Positions 2,674 through 8,583 of a stretch of DNA of 23,213 nucleotides are shown here, piece after piece. The first letter of the stretch is position 1; every line of letters begins with the position of its first letter. A program made the translations under genes and the position numbers. The notes beneath the pieces were generated by a model. That model had not been told where the DNA came from, did no database searches, and was given only the letters and a program-made list of their open reading frames with translations. This DNA comes from a virus. The DNA is taken from the IMG/VR virus record IMGVR_UViG_3300005056_000078, positions 1 through 23,213 of that record; one strand, 5' to 3'.

Positions 2674-4035
2674 ATGAAATTATTTGATGACCAACTACTT
2701 GTGCTTGAACAGTTTGACGAGTGGCTGAACAATAGCAATGAAACTGTTTGTGGTTTGTTTGCTAGTGCAGGATTTGGTAAGTCGTACAGTATGAAGTCAT
2801 TGATTGATGAAGTTATTATAAAGAATAGTAACTACAATCCAGTGCTTACAAGTATGACTCATAGTGCTGTTGAAGTACTTAAAGATTTCACTGGTTTAAC
2901 CGTAACAACATTACATAGCCTTATGGGTTGGGTTCCTTATATTGATAAAGAAACTGGCGAAGAAGGCTTATCAACTCCTAAGATGCGGGATAAGAGTGCC
3001 GAGTCCAAACTAGAATCTACTGACTTATTATTAGTAGATGAAGCAGGGTTAACTGGGCATGACGAGTTAGCTTTATTGCTTGCAGAGGCAGCCGAGGTAG
3101 GATTCCGTATACTATTTGTTGGTGATTATAAACAGTGCTTCCCAGTAGTAAGGGAAGGGCAAAGACTTTGTGTACCAGCTTATGAATATACTAAAGAGCA
3201 TGGTACGTGGTTAAAGCTAGACATTCCTAAACGTGTAGACGAAGGGGATATGATTTACAAGCTTTCACTAGCATACCGCGCAGCAGTAGATGGTGCTAAA
3301 CAACCAAACCTACAGACAGCCCTTAACAAAGGCTCGAACAAAGGTGTGCGTGTAGTAGATGATATTGAAGAGTTAGCTTATAGAGCTTTCGCGGCTGGCA
3401 TTCGCGATGGTAATACAAGAAATATTAAAGTATTGGCATATACTAACAAACGATGCCTAACTCTGAACCGTAAGATTCGTAAGAAGATTATGGGGCATAA
3501 AGACCCTACTCCTACCGTTGGAGAAGAGATGGTTGCTAACACAGCTATCACTGATGTTTCTGGTGATGTTATCATTAGAAACAACAGCCTACTAACCGTG
3601 ACAGGTGTAGAGAAAACTACTAGTCATGGATTAGATGGTGCATTCATGCAATTCAATGACCGTGATGGTGAACCTATTGAAGAAATAGTATTCGTACCAT
3701 CTACACCTCAAAAGTTACTTGACCGTCTAAAGAAACTATCTAACGAAGCTAAGGCTATGAAAGCTAATGGCTTTGAAGAAGAGTCTCGTATGGCTTGGCG
3801 TAGCTTCTTTAGTCTTAAAGAGGGTTGTGCTGATATAAGATATACCTATGCAATGACTGTCAATAAGAGCCAAGGGATTACTCTTAAACACTCTTTAGTT
3901 GATATATGTGACATAGATGCCTGTCGTGACCATGAACAGAAAGTTCGTATGATTTACACAGCCATAACTAGAGCCACAGATTTTGTGACTATAGAAGGTG
4001 AGGTGACCAGTGAGCCGACTAACAACAGACCATAG
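2674..4035 (+). CDS. SF1 DNA helicase, Dda/RecD-like (453 aa)
   Basis: An ATP-driven superfamily 1 helicase. Motif I is FASAGFGKS (Lys36), motif Ia is near TSMTHSAVEVL, motif II is LLLVDEAGL (Asp122, Glu123) and motif III is GDYKQCFPV (150-158). The C-terminal UvrD/RecD2 half has TVNKSQG (from 395) and YTAITRA (428-434, motif VI Arg). Length matches T4 Dda (about 440 aa). The first Gly of the usual GxAGxGKS loop is Ala. Dda-type helicases remodel stalled forks and help start origin or recombination-dependent replication. The gene follows the standard GGAGAAACTT leader, and its last 26 bases overlap the start of the homing-endonuclease-like gene. A processive DnaB/gp4-type helicase is not seen in the window. 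Confidence 0.93.
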   Translation: MKLFDDQLLVLEQFDEWLNNSNETVCGLFASAGFGKSYSMKSLIDEVIIKNSNYNPVLTSMTHSAVEVLKDFTGLTVTTLHSLMGWVPYIDKETGEEGLSTPKMRDKSAESKLESTDLLLVDEAGLTGHDELALLLAEAAEVGFRILFVGDYKQCFPVVREGQRLCVPAYEYTKEHGTWLKLDIPKRVDEGDMIYKLSLAYRAAVDGAKQPNLQTALNKGSNKGVRVVDDIEELAYRAFAAGIRDGNTRNIKVLAYTNKRCLTLNRKIRKKIMGHKDPTPTVGEEMVANTAITDVSGDVIIRNNSLLTVTGVEKTTSHGLDGAFMQFNDRDGEPIEEIVFVPSTPQKLLDRLKKLSNEAKAMKANGFEEESRMAWRSFFSLKEGCADIRYTYAMTVNKSQGITLKHSLVDICDIDACRDHEQKVRMIYTAITRATDFVTIEGEVTSEPTNNRP

Positions 4036-5295: not shown

Positions 5296-5565
5296 ATGAA
5301 TGGTCGTAAAGCAAAATTATTACGTAGTCTAGCTGGTGTTAACAAACAGAATCGTGATAGCCGTAGTTATCATGGTACTAATGTGAAGACTAAACAGTTA
5401 CTTCACCCTACCGAAATTAATGTAGATGGTAGTCCTATCTTATTAGGTACTTACCAAACTGCTACGTATGCCCTAAATCAAGGCGCACGTTTACTAAATA
5501 AGATGTTGAAACGTAATTACTTAAGTACGTTACGTAATCCAACGAAGAACATGGTAATGGCGTAA
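5296..5565 (+). CDS. small basic hypothetical protein (89 aa)
   Basis: ATG 5296 is preferred over GTG 5284 because GTGAGAAA then serves as its ribosome binding site. The 89-residue product (MNGRKAKLLRSLAGVNKQNRDSR and on) is rich in Lys and Arg at both ends, with NQGARLLNKMLKRNYLSTLR near the C terminus. No Cys pairs or membrane helix. The charge suggests a nucleic-acid-associated or structural role, which is inference. It is the last gene before the first long structured noncoding stretch. Confidence 0.65.
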   Translation: MNGRKAKLLRSLAGVNKQNRDSRSYHGTNVKTKQLLHPTEINVDGSPILLGTYQTATYALNQGARLLNKMLKRNYLSTLRNPTKNMVMA

Positions 5566-5569
5566 GCTG

Positions 5570-6107
5570 TTATTGAGTATTGCTAGCCAGCGCAATTAAA
5601 GATTAACTGGTACATGGCGGTGTGATTCCGCGTGGGTGTGACGAAGTAACCTTACAAGCCCTCGTGCTTGAATAATAAAGTCAAATCTCGCTAGTGGGAG
5701 GATAAACTAACTAGCCACCTTTATAAGGGTGGTCTTGAGGCAATGAAGCGAACTGAGGCAATACTTAGTAGGCGCAGGGATAGGCTAGTATGGTAACGTA
5801 CTAGTCGATAGCCTCTAAACAGGCTCGCACTATGTAAGTGGAATAAAACTACGGCATACCCTACCAGAGGTTCATATCGGTTAGAATCCGAGTTGTCGCA
5901 AGCTATTTAGATACCGTGAGTGCATACGATAAAACTGTCGAGGTAGGACATAAAACCTATGGTGAGCCACACTTGAATGGTATGTTATAGTTTATCTACA
6001 TAAGTTCAGAAGAGAAAATGTAGACTCAATAATGAGTATAACAATGTACGCGTATCCTCCCAGCGAATGAGGTGTAGACTGTCCAGCTATGGGAAGGTCT
6101 TTAAAAA
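5570..6107 (+). ncRNA. candidate large structured noncoding RNA 1
   Basis: No plausible gene occurs in about 590 bases, while paired elements are dense. They include CAAGC/GCTTG around 5655-5670; GCTAGT (5690-5695)/ACTAGC (5709-5714); CCACC/GGTGG beside it; CTAGTA (5785-5790)/TACTAG (5799-5804) inside AGGCTA/TAGCCT; CACT/AGTG near 5828; TCGG-TTAGAAT-CCGA near 5877-5891; long-range CCTACC/GGTAGG (about 5860 with 5942); and a three-way junction at 5983-6043. A nine-base direct repeat TGAGGCAAT occurs at 5736 and 5754. Boundaries and strand are inferred: neighbouring genes are all on +. Size fits the ROOL/GOLLD type of phage RNA, but no consensus match was verified. Confidence 0.55.
5983..6043 (+). 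other. three-way helical junction within ncRNA candidate 1
   Basis: Closing helix TGTTATA (5983-5989)/TATAACA (6037-6043), seven perfect pairs. It encloses TCTACAT (5995-6001)/ATGTAGA (6018-6024), seven perfect pairs, and a small stem CTC/GAG (6025-6027/6034-6036) with loop AATAAT. The nesting is consistent and leaves short single-stranded joins, as expected for a folded RNA. Confidence 0.6.
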
Positions 6108-6152: not shown

Positions 6153-7133
6153 ATGCCTAACCAAAACTACGCTGCTGATGGTTCAGTCCTAAGTGGTTCT
6201 GTGTGGGTAAAGCAAGATATACTCTCACTGTTGAAGTTGAATAACTTACCAAAAGGCTTAGTTGGACTTAACACTAAACTAGGTCTAGCAGAGGTCATTC
6301 AAAAGGAAGGCAAGAAAGCAGTATTTATGAAACTCGGAAAGCTACTTAACCAACAAGGTCTGGAAGAGAAGCAAGTAAGAGAGTCTAGCCAGATACTAAC
6401 AGAATTGAAGATACTGCATACACAGGAAGTGTCCTTTGCATATACTGAGGAAGAAATCCTTAGAGTATACCAAGAAGGACCAAGTGCTTGCATGGCTAAT
6501 TGTGAATCAGTTGCACTATATTCCAATGACTATACAGCTGTTGCTTACCTAGAAGTTAAGGGTAAGATACTAGCCAGAACTGTAATATGTAGAGATAAAG
6601 AAATAGGTCTTTCTTATAACTCTTTGTATGGGTTTGGTGAACCACTTGCTAAGATGTTGGAAGAACTAGGTTATACTAGTGGAGACTTAGAGGGTTGCTA
6701 TTTACCACTAAGGCATGACCACCTAGGCAGGATAATGTGTCCTTACATAGATGGTACTAATTATATAACTGTAGAAGGTGATGAAATATCTATTTCTAGC
6801 GATGGTGAATACCAAGCAGATAGTACTGATGGTATCTTAGTGGAGCATACTTGTGATGAATGTCACGAAACGTTACTAAGAGATGAAGTTTATTACTCGG
6901 AGCATAGTGAACAGAACTTATGTGAGGGCTGTCACGAGGTCCATCATGTCTATATAGATGGAGAAAGTTATCACAAAGAAAGTGACTCTGTACAGGAACT
7001 AGAAGATGATAGTTATGTATTATCAGAAGATGCCGAGTACCTAGAGTATAGGAATGAATGGCACTTATTAGAAGATTGTGCATATAACAATTATGATGAA
7101 GTGTACATACTTAAAGAAGATTTAGATTTGTAA
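6153..7133 (+). CDS. probable zinc-binding phage protein (326 aa), between two structured RNA candidates
   Basis: ATG 6153 follows an excellent ribosome binding site (TTGGAGGT). Residues 1-95 are helical. Residues 97-180 contain VYQEGPSACMA and SVALYSNDYTAVAYLEVKGKILAR with LAKMLEELGY, a pattern I associate with uncharacterised phage proteins. Residues 234-260 carry CDEC...CEGC (Cys234, 237, 257, 260), a CxxC-x19-CxxC zinc site. The tail (280-326) is acidic and aromatic, with three short repeats of the type Y/H-x-L-x-E-D (SYVLSED, EWHLLED, VYILKED). Function unknown. Its place alone between two noncoding structured stretches allows a role with those RNAs, but this is inference. Confidence 0.8.
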   Translation: MPNQNYAADGSVLSGSVWVKQDILSLLKLNNLPKGLVGLNTKLGLAEVIQKEGKKAVFMKLGKLLNQQGLEEKQVRESSQILTELKILHTQEVSFAYTEEEILRVYQEGPSACMANCESVALYSNDYTAVAYLEVKGKILARTVICRDKEIGLSYNSLYGFGEPLAKMLEELGYTSGDLEGCYLPLRHDHLGRIMCPYIDGTNYITVEGDEISISSDGEYQADSTDGILVEHTCDECHETLLRDEVYYSEHSEQNLCEGCHEVHHVYIDGESYHKESDSVQELEDDSYVLSEDAEYLEYRNEWHLLEDCAYNNYDEVYILKEDLDL

Positions 7134-7353
7134 AGAATTCCTTTGTTGGATAATCCCGACAGGACGACGTAGGTATGGAGGCGTGGTTAAATAAACTCGA
7201 TGCAAATGGTTGCAGAAACCCACGTAATGGTGAAACACTAGCGCACTACTCAGGAGTCGGTGCATAAACTGACTGCTCTTATAGAACTTCGTGTGTCTAT
7301 GGTTCGCATACCTTAAGTGTCGATTAGTATCCGTAAGATACTACCAATATTAT

Positions 7354-7426
7354 GTTGTGGTAGCTCAGTTTGGCAGAGCAGTGGGGAATATCCCATTGGA
7401 CACTGGTTCGAATCCAGTTCACGACT
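7354..7426 (+). tRNA. tRNA-like element with abnormal anticodon loop (possibly degenerate or non-decoding)
   Basis: All tRNA arms are present. Acceptor GTTGTGG/TCACGAC pairs at 7/7 (two G-T). The D arm is GCTC-AGTTTGGCA-GAGC with the conserved GG. The anticodon stem is GTGGG/CCCAT, the variable loop is TGGAC, and the T arm ACTGG-TTCGAAT-CCAGT is perfect. Total 73 bases, and no CCA is encoded. The anticodon loop, however, has six bases (GAATAT), or eight if the last pair opens, and has no T at position 33. So no normal anticodon can be named. It may be a decayed tRNA or a tRNA mimic that is still processed by RNase P but does not decode. Confidence 0.7.
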
Positions 7427-7507
7427 AACAAAACCGTTGGACAACTTTGAGAAGGAACCAAAGCGGATAATTAGGTTGTAAGCCCTAAGAGAGCTATGTA
7501 TGAAAAG

Positions 7508-7575
7508 CTAACCAAATGAAGGTTAGTAAAGCGTGACACTGACGAGTGTTAGGTAGACGGCTAACATTTGGTTAG
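7508..7575 (+). other. long hairpin within ncRNA candidate 2
   Basis: CTAACCAAATG (7508-7518) and CATTTGGTTAG (7565-7575) pair perfectly over eleven positions. GTTAG (7522-7526) and CTAA (7561-7564) can extend it, and an inner hairpin ACACT-GACG-AGTGT lies at 7536-7549. Confidence 0.65.
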
Positions 7576-7600
7576 TTATATCTACAAATAGCAGCTAACT

Positions 7601-7722
7601 TATATTATCAAGCACACTCACGAGTAAGGTTCAAGTCCTTACCAAGCATACGACCTCTAGTTATGTTTACTCCGTTTCATGAAGCTATTCCTTTATGTAT
7701 GTCGAGTGTGTTTGATAATATA
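7601..7722 (+). other. 19-pair long-range stem closing a multibranch domain with a T-loop hairpin
   Basis: TATATTATCAAGCACACTC (7601-7619) pairs with GAGTGTGTTTGATAATATA (7704-7722): 18 Watson-Crick pairs and one G-T. Inside, GTAAGG-TTCAAGT-CCTTAC (7624-7642) is a perfect six-pair hairpin whose seven-base loop fits the tRNA T-loop consensus TTCRANY. CATAC (7647-7651) can pair with GTATG (7697-7701). Confidence 0.7.
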
Positions 7723-7856
7723 CGCTAGCGTGGTTATCACAGAACCTACATCTAGCAAATGAGTTGCTTAGTCCTAGTTAAAGGACTGTCCCGACGATAA
7801 TAAAAGGATAACAAGTTATGTTAAGGTGAATAGTGACCGTTTAGATTCGATAACAT

Positions 7857-7895
7857 TCCCTGCCCTACAAGGTAGATAATAGCCGCTGGCAGGGA
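7857..7895 (+). other. stem-loop domain within ncRNA candidate 2
   Basis: TCCCTGCC (7857-7864) pairs perfectly with GGCAGGGA (7888-7895). A nested hairpin CTAC-AAG-GTAG sits directly on it (7865-7875), consistent with coaxial stacking. Confidence 0.6.
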
Positions 7896-7905
7896 TAATA
7901 GAGTA

Positions 7906-7977
7906 TACTTGTAGTTAGGCATTAGTCTGGTGAGAACCAGTAATGCAGTGGAGCAAACTAGTGCCGAACTACAAGTA
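7906..7977 (+). other. 3'-terminal domain of ncRNA candidate 2 with GNRA tetraloop
   Basis: TACTTGTAGTT (7906-7916) and AACTACAAGTA (7967-7977) form eleven perfect pairs. GGCA/TGCC (7918-7921/7962-7965) can extend it. Nested inside are GCATT (7919-7923)/AATGC (7942-7946) and CTGGT-GAGA-ACCAG (7927-7940), a five-pair stem with a GNRA-type loop. GGCA and GCATT overlap and are alternatives. Confidence 0.65.
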
Positions 7978-8033
7978 CCCTTTACTTGAAATAGAGCAAC
8001 CTCGCTCACAATCTTTATATAGAGAGATAGAAA

Positions 8034-8378
8034 ATGTCTAATAAAACCCCTAAAACTACAATCCAAGAAATCTTTGGTAAATTCGCAGTACAAGTTGAAG
8101 ATGGCGAAGTAAAATTATTTGTTACTTTAAAAGAAGCTACTGCCGTAGAAACTGAGTTCCTTAAAGGTGCTGAGTTCCGTGATGAAGCTGCTGCTTTCTG
8201 CGCCAACCAAGGTATTGAAGGTAAGAATGCTAAGTCTAAGACTAACATCTTAGTAGCCTACTTCTCATGGGTAGAAGCTGGCAAGCCAGAAGCTCCAGTA
8301 GTTGAAGAAACTCCAGTAGTTGAAGACGAAGCTGTTGCTGCAGAAGCTGTTGCTGATGATTCAGAAGTAGAATTCTAA
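8034..8378 (+). CDS. small acidic-tailed protein, SSB-like C-terminal tip (114 aa)
   Basis: ATG 8034 lies behind AGAGATAGAAA. Residues 1-80 form a compact mixed domain (IQEIFGKFAVQVEDGEVKLFVTLKEATAVETEFLKGAEF...NILVAYFSWVEAG). Residues 83-114 are a Pro/Val/Ala/Glu-rich acidic tail with an imperfect repeat (PVVEETPVVEDE) ending DDSEVEF. The tail type, acidic with a final Phe, is that of SSB and T7 gp2.5, where it binds partner proteins and mimics DNA. A strong terminator follows and a long structured transcript precedes it. Function unknown. A DNA- or RNA-binding accessory protein is a reasonable guess. Confidence 0.8.
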   Translation: MSNKTPKTTIQEIFGKFAVQVEDGEVKLFVTLKEATAVETEFLKGAEFRDEAAAFCANQGIEGKNAKSKTNILVAYFSWVEAGKPEAPVVEETPVVEDEAVAAEAVADDSEVEF

Positions 8379-8391
8379 ACCAACCAGTAAT

Positions 8392-8425
8392 TGAATAAAA
8401 CCTAGCTAATGCTAGGTTTTATTCA
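8392..8425 (+). terminator. strong intrinsic terminator after the acidic-tailed gene
   Basis: TGAATAAAACCTAG (8392-8405) and CTAGGTTTTATTCA (8412-8425) form a perfect 14-pair stem around CTAATG. The A-run/T-run within the stem is typical of bidirectional terminators. It starts 13 bases after the stop codon. Confidence 0.9.
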
Positions 8426-8583
8426 GGTGGGTGCGCTCCTGATACGTAAGGCTGTATACCCCCCTACCCAGATATTTGGTGACTAGAGAAAGAATTAATG
8501 AATAATCTCAACGTACTGAAAAGGGTCGCAACCTGCGTTTCTACCTGAATAGAACTTACTAACTGAACTGACATTAACTAATT
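8426..8583 (+). other. short untranslated segment bounded by two terminators; possible small RNA or leader
   Basis: Between the terminators at 8392-8425 and 8584-8616 there is no convincing gene; the only frame with a fair ribosome site would be 16 codons from ATG 8498. GGTGGG (8426-8431) can pair with CCTACC near 8463-8468, enclosing ATAC/GTAT. A small RNA or the leader of the downstream genes is possible. I see no known riboswitch pattern. Confidence 0.3.

What the first reader, a model, noticed from the sequence alone, without database searches (positions are those of the whole stretch)
7354..7426. tRNA-like fold with perfect acceptor, D and T arms but no usable anticodon loop
The anticodon stem closes on six bases (GAATAT), or eight if opened, and lacks the universal T33. 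All other parts are well conserved, including the T-loop TTCGAAT. Selective loss of decoding with retention of the tRNA shape suggests a mimic, perhaps a processing signal for RNase P/RNase Z that trims the surrounding RNA, rather than simple decay.
Basis: partly seen in the sequence, partly recalled or inferred. Interest (0 to 1): 0.72.

Follow-up and report, generated by a model that had tools for sequence, protein, structure and literature searches.

The report
Anticodon-less tRNA mimic in phage RNA
A phage from a metagenome carries a tRNA-shaped RNA that probably cannot read codons, set inside a long, folded, non-coding RNA; a close relative keeps the same tRNA shape at the same spot without any anticodon arm, which suggests that the shape serves something other than translation, most likely to have the RNA cut.

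Summary
Window 7354-7426 folds as a tRNA (Rfam 47.2 bits) whose anticodon arm closes on six bases without T33. It lies in a gene-free, strongly folded stretch, 7134-8033 (z = -6.5), of a Zobellviridae-like phage record. The closest relative found, L218, has the counterpart at the same place (37.1 bits): 16 of 16 acceptor, D and T pairs are kept, 4 with changes on both sides, while no anticodon arm can form. Four more tRNA-shaped elements with abnormal anticodon regions, and one normal tRNA-Met, lie in the islands of L010, L023 and L143. The stretch after the tRNA is itself a conserved RNA: 15 of 62 predicted pairs differ on both sides between window and L218; no Rfam family fits, GOLLD and ROOL included. 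Simple decay is less likely and decoding very unlikely. My reading: a tRNA-shaped domain of a large phage RNA, kept for its elbow and acceptor, probably an RNase P/RNase Z site, as in MALAT1/mascRNA. The shape's upkeep is shown for two records; cutting is inferred and untested.

The parts
7354..7426 (+). tRNA-shaped element: acceptor 7354-7360/7419-7425, D arm 7363-7366/7376-7379, abnormal anticodon arm 7381-7396 (loop GAATAT 7386-7391), T arm 7402-7406/7414-7418, base 7426 in the discriminator place, no CCA
   Evidence: counterpart in L218 4285-4355
7134..8033 (+). gene-free, strongly folded stretch holding the element; the 3' part of the island before ORF8034
   Evidence: no + strand ORF of 60 codons; MFE -282.6, z -6.5, 0 of 60 shuffles as low; 300-nt window at 7501 z -8.0, the most extreme of the record's + strand windows
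7574..8033 (+). 3' RNA shared with L218 4529-5005, conserved blocks AAATAGNAGCTAAC, ACAAGTTATGT, TTTAGATTCGATAAC and CCCTACAAGG
   Evidence: blastn blocks 77-79%, alignment, consensus fold with 15 of 62 pairs changed on both sides, motifs
7601..7722 (+). 18-pair helix 7601-7618/7705-7722 with its inner stretch; 8 of 18 pairs changed on both sides in L218
5566..6152 (+). further gene-free stretch, probably the 5' part of the same island, parted from the rest by ORF6153
   Evidence: short matches to the L218 island (6004-6049, 6021-6049); z -2.2, 3 of 60 shuffles as low
6153..7133 (+). ORF6153, 326 aa, unknown function; lies inside the island here, is not in the island of L218 or L143, and lies after ORF8034 in L010, L011 and L023
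   Evidence: no Pfam or PHROG match over cut-off
8034..8378 (+). ORF8034, 114 aa, acidic tail, unknown function; the gene directly after the island in window, L218, L143, L010 and L023

Best explanation
The element is a tRNA-shaped domain without decoding function inside a large structured RNA that fills the gap before ORF8034. Shown for window and L218: acceptor stem, D arm, T arm and the usual D-loop and T-loop bases are kept while the anticodon arm is not. Inferred: in a longer transcript the elbow plus acceptor is read by host RNase P on the 5' side and by RNase Z or 3' exonucleases on the 3' side. That would free the element, part the upstream message from the 600-nt 3' RNA and ORF8034 message, and give the latter a defined 5' end. 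The element most likely arose from an ordinary phage tRNA and was reused. Confidence: about 0.65 that the shape is kept for a non-decoding role, about 0.45 that this role is processing.
For: Same place and shape in L218 with 4 pairs changed on both sides, 3 on one side, 0 of 16 broken, and no possible anticodon helix above 3 pairs; chance 3 of 400,000 or 91 of 400,000 by two models. The neighbouring RNA is conserved in structure. In the islands of window, L218, L010, L023 and L143, 6 of 7 tRNA shapes have an abnormal anticodon region. T arms are enriched in islands, 8 in 7,627 bases against 3 in 131,410. mascRNA and menRNA, which keep acceptor, T arm and elbow without a conserved anticodon loop, are cut by RNase P and RNase Z and not charged (passages of PMC11693755).
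Against: Only one clear orthologue was found, so the covariation rests on two sequences. L143 has a normal tRNA-Met in its island. L218's acceptor has a bulge. Folding of the islands in L150, L010 and L016 is ordinary (z -0.6, -1.1 and -0.1, 0.0). No transcript data. The scans that found most elements require acceptor and T arm, which favours seeing those arms intact.
Confidence: 0.5

Rival explanations
1. Plain decay: phage tRNA genes come and go in this island, and window, L218 and others were caught soon after losing the anticodon arm; the other arms have not yet had time to break.
For: L143 has a normal tRNA-Met in its island; the element resembles phage tRNA-Asn, tRNA-Ile and tRNA-Met (up to 80%); the window arm could come from a one-base deletion.
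Against: In window and L218 both anticodon regions are broken in different ways, yet none of the other 16 pairs is broken; 6 of 7 island elements would have to be caught in the same state; L218 has lost the arm wholly.
Confidence: 0.27
2. The tRNA shape is a building block of the large RNA itself (fold, assembly or stability of the 3' RNA) rather than a cutting site, as a docked domain.
For: It lies at a fixed place before a conserved folded RNA; tRNAs are sometimes found in the GOLLD linker (passages of PMC12286853); tRNAOther is proposed to be a tRNA-like element in a larger RNA (passages of PMC3399842).
Against: L150 has an island without any T arm; no interaction between element and 3' RNA was found or sought.
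Confidence: 0.13
3. Decoy: the element occupies host factors that bind the tRNA elbow or acceptor end, for example tRNA-cutting defence enzymes, and has lost the anticodon that would mark it as a target.
For: Phage tRNAs with changed anticodon loops are proposed to evade tRNA-cutting defences (title and abstract start of PMC10264068).
Against: Those tRNAs are proposed to be working tRNAs; no encoded CCA here; nothing ties the island to a defence gene.
Confidence: 0.06
4. A working tRNA with an eight-base loop that reads four bases (aata) and shifts the frame.
For: ARAGORN can draw an 8-nt loop with aata.
Against: No T33 in either reading; the counterpart in L218 has no anticodon arm at all.
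Confidence: 0.03

Closest known systems
mascRNA / menRNA (tRNA-like processing elements of MALAT1 and MEN beta; Rfam RF01684)
   Same: tRNA shape inside a long non-coding RNA; acceptor, T arm and elbow kept; no conserved anticodon loop; not charged (passages of PMC11693755)
   Different: Human, nuclear; small D arm and a long anticodon-side stem; cutting is proven there and not tested here; no RF01684 match among those listed for the window up to E = 5
tRNAOther of Bacillus cereus
   Different: Has a Trp anticodon; single chromosomal gene, not in a phage island
GOLLD and ROOL, large structured phage RNAs
   Same: Long non-coding RNA of phages, near tRNAs; in GOLLD a tRNA is sometimes within the linker (passages of PMC12286853)
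   Different: No match to either model; no evidence here of multimers
Phage tRNAs with anticodon-loop mutations
   Same: Phage-encoded, tRNA fold, altered anticodon loop (title and abstract start of PMC10264068; a term search of its text for decoy, pseudo and similar words found nothing)
   Different: Those are proposed still to work as tRNAs; here decoding is lost

Membership tests
Functional tRNA gene | cloverleaf score over the Rfam cut-off | tested here: met
   47.2 bits against 29
Functional tRNA gene | seven-base anticodon loop with T33 | tested here: not met
   six (or eight) bases, no T33; no anticodon arm in L218
Functional tRNA gene | aminoacylation and decoding | not testable with these tools
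   no experiment possible
tRNA with intron, or tmRNA | intron in the anticodon loop; tmRNA fold | tested here: not met
   ARAGORN with introns 0-3000 nt and tmRNA search on 7001-8100; permuted tmRNA only 13.5 bits against 47
GOLLD (RF02032) | match to the covariance model | tested here: not met
   0 matches at E <= 10 in the window; none listed at E <= 5 in 7100-8050
ROOL (RF03087) | match to the covariance model | tested here: not met
   0 matches at E <= 10 (whose control genomes rang nowhere, so weak alone); none listed at E <= 5 in 7100-8050
mascRNA-type processing element | acceptor, T arm and elbow kept without a working anticodon arm, inside a longer non-coding RNA | tested here: met
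mascRNA-type processing element | cut by RNase P and RNase Z | not testable with these tools
   inferred only
Zobellviridae (host phage) | replication genes most like those of the family | tested here: met
   listed DNA polymerase hits 43-51% identical; 4 of 4 records opened from that list are classed Zobellviridae; no capsid or portal gene was examined

The most novel reading that the evidence does not exclude
The gap before ORF8034 encodes a new class of large structured phage RNA (about 0.9-1.7 kb in window, L218 and L143) that has taken over tRNA genes as anticodon-less processing or assembly modules, a bacterial-virus counterpart of MALAT1/mascRNA. In some elements the former anticodon region holds a self-complementary stretch (ATGGCCAT in L010, TGATCA in L143) through which copies of the RNA could pair with each other; this last point was noticed afterwards and not tested, and the window's loop has no such six-base stretch.
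Probability: 0.35. Interest if true: 0.78.

Novelty: new variant of a known kind. Interest (0 to 1): 0.6.

Why it matters
Large structured phage RNAs such as GOLLD and ROOL are often found near tRNAs, for unknown reasons. A tRNA shape kept by compensatory change after loss of decoding, inside another such RNA, offers a testable reason: the tRNA shape as a processing or assembly module. It also warns that tRNA calls marked undetermined in phage genomes are not always junk.

Tried and rejected
Considered and rejected: tRNA with an anticodon-loop intron and tmRNA; permuted tmRNA (13.5 bits against 47); GOLLD and ROOL; four-base decoding (no anticodon arm in L218). The second T-arm-like hairpin in the window, around 7630, is probably incidental: its place in L218 holds a different hairpin and its acceptor partner is poor.

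Results against my reading: folding of the islands in L150, L010 and L016 is ordinary, so strong folding is seen in window, L143 and L015 rather than in all. The scan found T arms with an acceptor but no canonical anticodon arm also in control loci (6 of 30 T arms, against 7 of 39 in relatives), so that count alone shows nothing. Elements seen in L015 (868-945; 6 of 7 acceptor pairs) and L016 (about 7951-8010; no clear D arm) lie at other places; I left them out of the count of seven. L143 2220-2290 fails the T8 rule of the scan, and L218 was not yet held then, so neither is in its rows.

Full report
ARAGORN reports one tRNA in the 23,213-base window, at 7354-7426 '+', of undetermined identity and with a four-base anticodon. 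Rfam's tRNA model gives 47.2 bits against a cut-off of 29. Acceptor (5 Watson-Crick and 2 wobble pairs), D arm and T arm are complete. With the usual spacing the anticodon loop has six bases, GAATAT, and no T33; ARAGORN draws the other option, eight bases.

Setting. The window is a whole virus record named in IMG/VR style only by kinship of its relatives; its DNA polymerase is most like those of Zobellviridae phages. The element lies between ORF6153 and ORF8034, in 900 bases without a + strand ORF of 60 codons. That stretch folds to -282.6 kcal/mol, below 60 of 60 dinucleotide shuffles (z = -6.5). Of the 300-base + strand windows over the record the one at 7501 is the most extreme (z = -8.0; only the + strand was scanned). 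Rfam at E <= 5 lists for 7100-8050 the tRNA and seven matches far below their cut-offs.

Relatives. Scans with the DNA polymerase, ORF8034 and ORF5284 brought in the relatives. The place before the ORF8034 homologue is a gene-free island in several of them, of very different length: 1,700 bases in L143, 1,416 in L218, 908 in L150, 508 in L010 (with 329 more before its ORF5284 homologue), 416 in L023. In L019, L013 and L015 the gap there is short.

The key comparison is L218, the closest relative at this place (helicase 73%, ORF5284 61%, ORF8034 68% identical). ARAGORN finds no tRNA there, but Rfam's tRNA model scores 4287-4355 at 37.1 bits. Counted arm by arm, 16 of 16 acceptor, D and T pairs hold in both, the L218 acceptor with one bulged A; 4 pairs differ on both sides, 3 on one side and 9 not at all. 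Between the D and T stems L218 has 19 bases in which no helix longer than 3 pairs fits. If the same pattern of changes is dealt out at random, all changed pairs still pair in 91 of 400,000 trials; if 11 side changes are scattered over the stems, all 16 pairs survive in 3 of 400,000. Allowing for eight places of the bulge these become 0.0018 and 0.00006.

The two elements are at the same place, about 150 and 180 bases before a shared block AAATAGNAGCTAAC. The RNA behind them is conserved too. In the two-sequence consensus fold 62 pairs are predicted, 15 with both sides changed; an 18-pair helix (window 7601-7618/7705-7722) has 8 such pairs. Two sequences are few, and RNAalifold seeks such pairs, so this is good but not overwhelming evidence for a real RNA. 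In the window ORF6153 splits the island; it is absent from the island of L218.

Other islands. L010 has a tRNA shape at 2167-2238 (34.4 bits) with 7 of 7 acceptor pairs and an encoded CCA; its anticodon arm ends in a four-base loop in ARAGORN's drawing, or in a 12-base loop on a five-pair stem. L023 has two: 1002-1140, with a normal D arm and a long insert in place of the anticodon arm, and 1173-1243, with 7 acceptor pairs and A at position 33. L143 has a normal tRNA-Met at 2379-2453 (63.5 bits) and a shape at 2220-2290 with an abnormal middle. So of 7 tRNA shapes in these islands (window, L218, L010, L023 twice, L143 twice), 1 has a normal anticodon loop. Strict T arms number 8 in 7,627 bases of island and 3 in 131,410 other bases of the same eight loci (Fisher p = 1e-8); these loci were chosen with the finding in mind, and the figure includes the tRNA-Met and the second window hairpin. 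For comparison, ARAGORN finds 3 tRNAs in 119 unrelated phage loci, 0 of them undetermined, and 8 tRNA-Arg genes with normal loops in distant relatives.

Interpretation. Loss of the anticodon arm with compensatory upkeep of the rest is what one expects if something reads the elbow and the acceptor. In mascRNA and menRNA the same parts are read by RNase P and RNase Z and there is no conserved anticodon loop (passages of PMC11693755). [quoted passage not shown] tRNAs are sometimes present in the linker of GOLLD, a cage-forming phage RNA (passages of PMC12286853), but the window does not match GOLLD. My best reading is therefore a processing module within a new large phage RNA. What is shown is the shape's upkeep in two records; that it is cut, and by which enzymes, is inferred. 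Serial decay of tRNA genes in a tRNA-rich island remains the main rival.

Novelty. I searched the held library for tRNA-like elements with phage, anticodon and RNase terms, for GOLLD, for Zobellviridae with tRNA and for phage tRNAs with decoy terms. None of the listed titles and abstract starts describes an anticodon-less tRNA element in a phage non-coding RNA. Most subscription papers are not held, and I read none of the 18 papers. I call it a new variant of a known kind.

Noticed in passing
window 8413-8558; L218 about 5397-5510; L010 about 3400-3610; L009 about 60-330; L023 about 1741-1975: A second structured RNA after ORF8034, closed by a long helix (window arms 8413-8428/8543-8558), with shared pieces AATGAATA...GGTCGC in window, L009 and L218 and, by eye, TACGTAAG in window, L010 and L023.
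   Followed up: partly
window 5632-5683; L143 13184-13235; L157 2100-2126; L149 10291-10317: A short conserved non-coding block GTGGGTGTGAYGAARTAACC (86.5% over 52 bases with L143) found at different places of related phages.
   Followed up: no
L010 2753-2800; L011 4379-4420; L218 4251-4290: A conserved motif, a small hairpin, then AAGCGYAT, then a hairpin with GTGAGTC, with different stem letters in each; in L218 it stands directly before the tRNA-shaped element.
   Followed up: partly
window 6153-7133: ORF6153 lies before the island here but after ORF8034 in L010, L011 and L023, so it has moved.
   Followed up: partly
L121 12184-12255 (minus strand): A tRNA called Ile(aat) in an unrelated phage locus whose loop appears to lack T33 as well.
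   Followed up: no
L213 1496-1571, 1676-1751, 1970-2046: Burkholderia phage BcepSaruman: ARAGORN finds 4 tRNAs in this stretch, none annotated in the record's feature table there.
   Followed up: partly
L010 about 2190-2205; L143 about 2245-2256: Self-complementary stretches in the former anticodon regions (ATGGCCAT, TGATCA); possible pairing between copies, seen afterwards and not tested.
   Followed up: no
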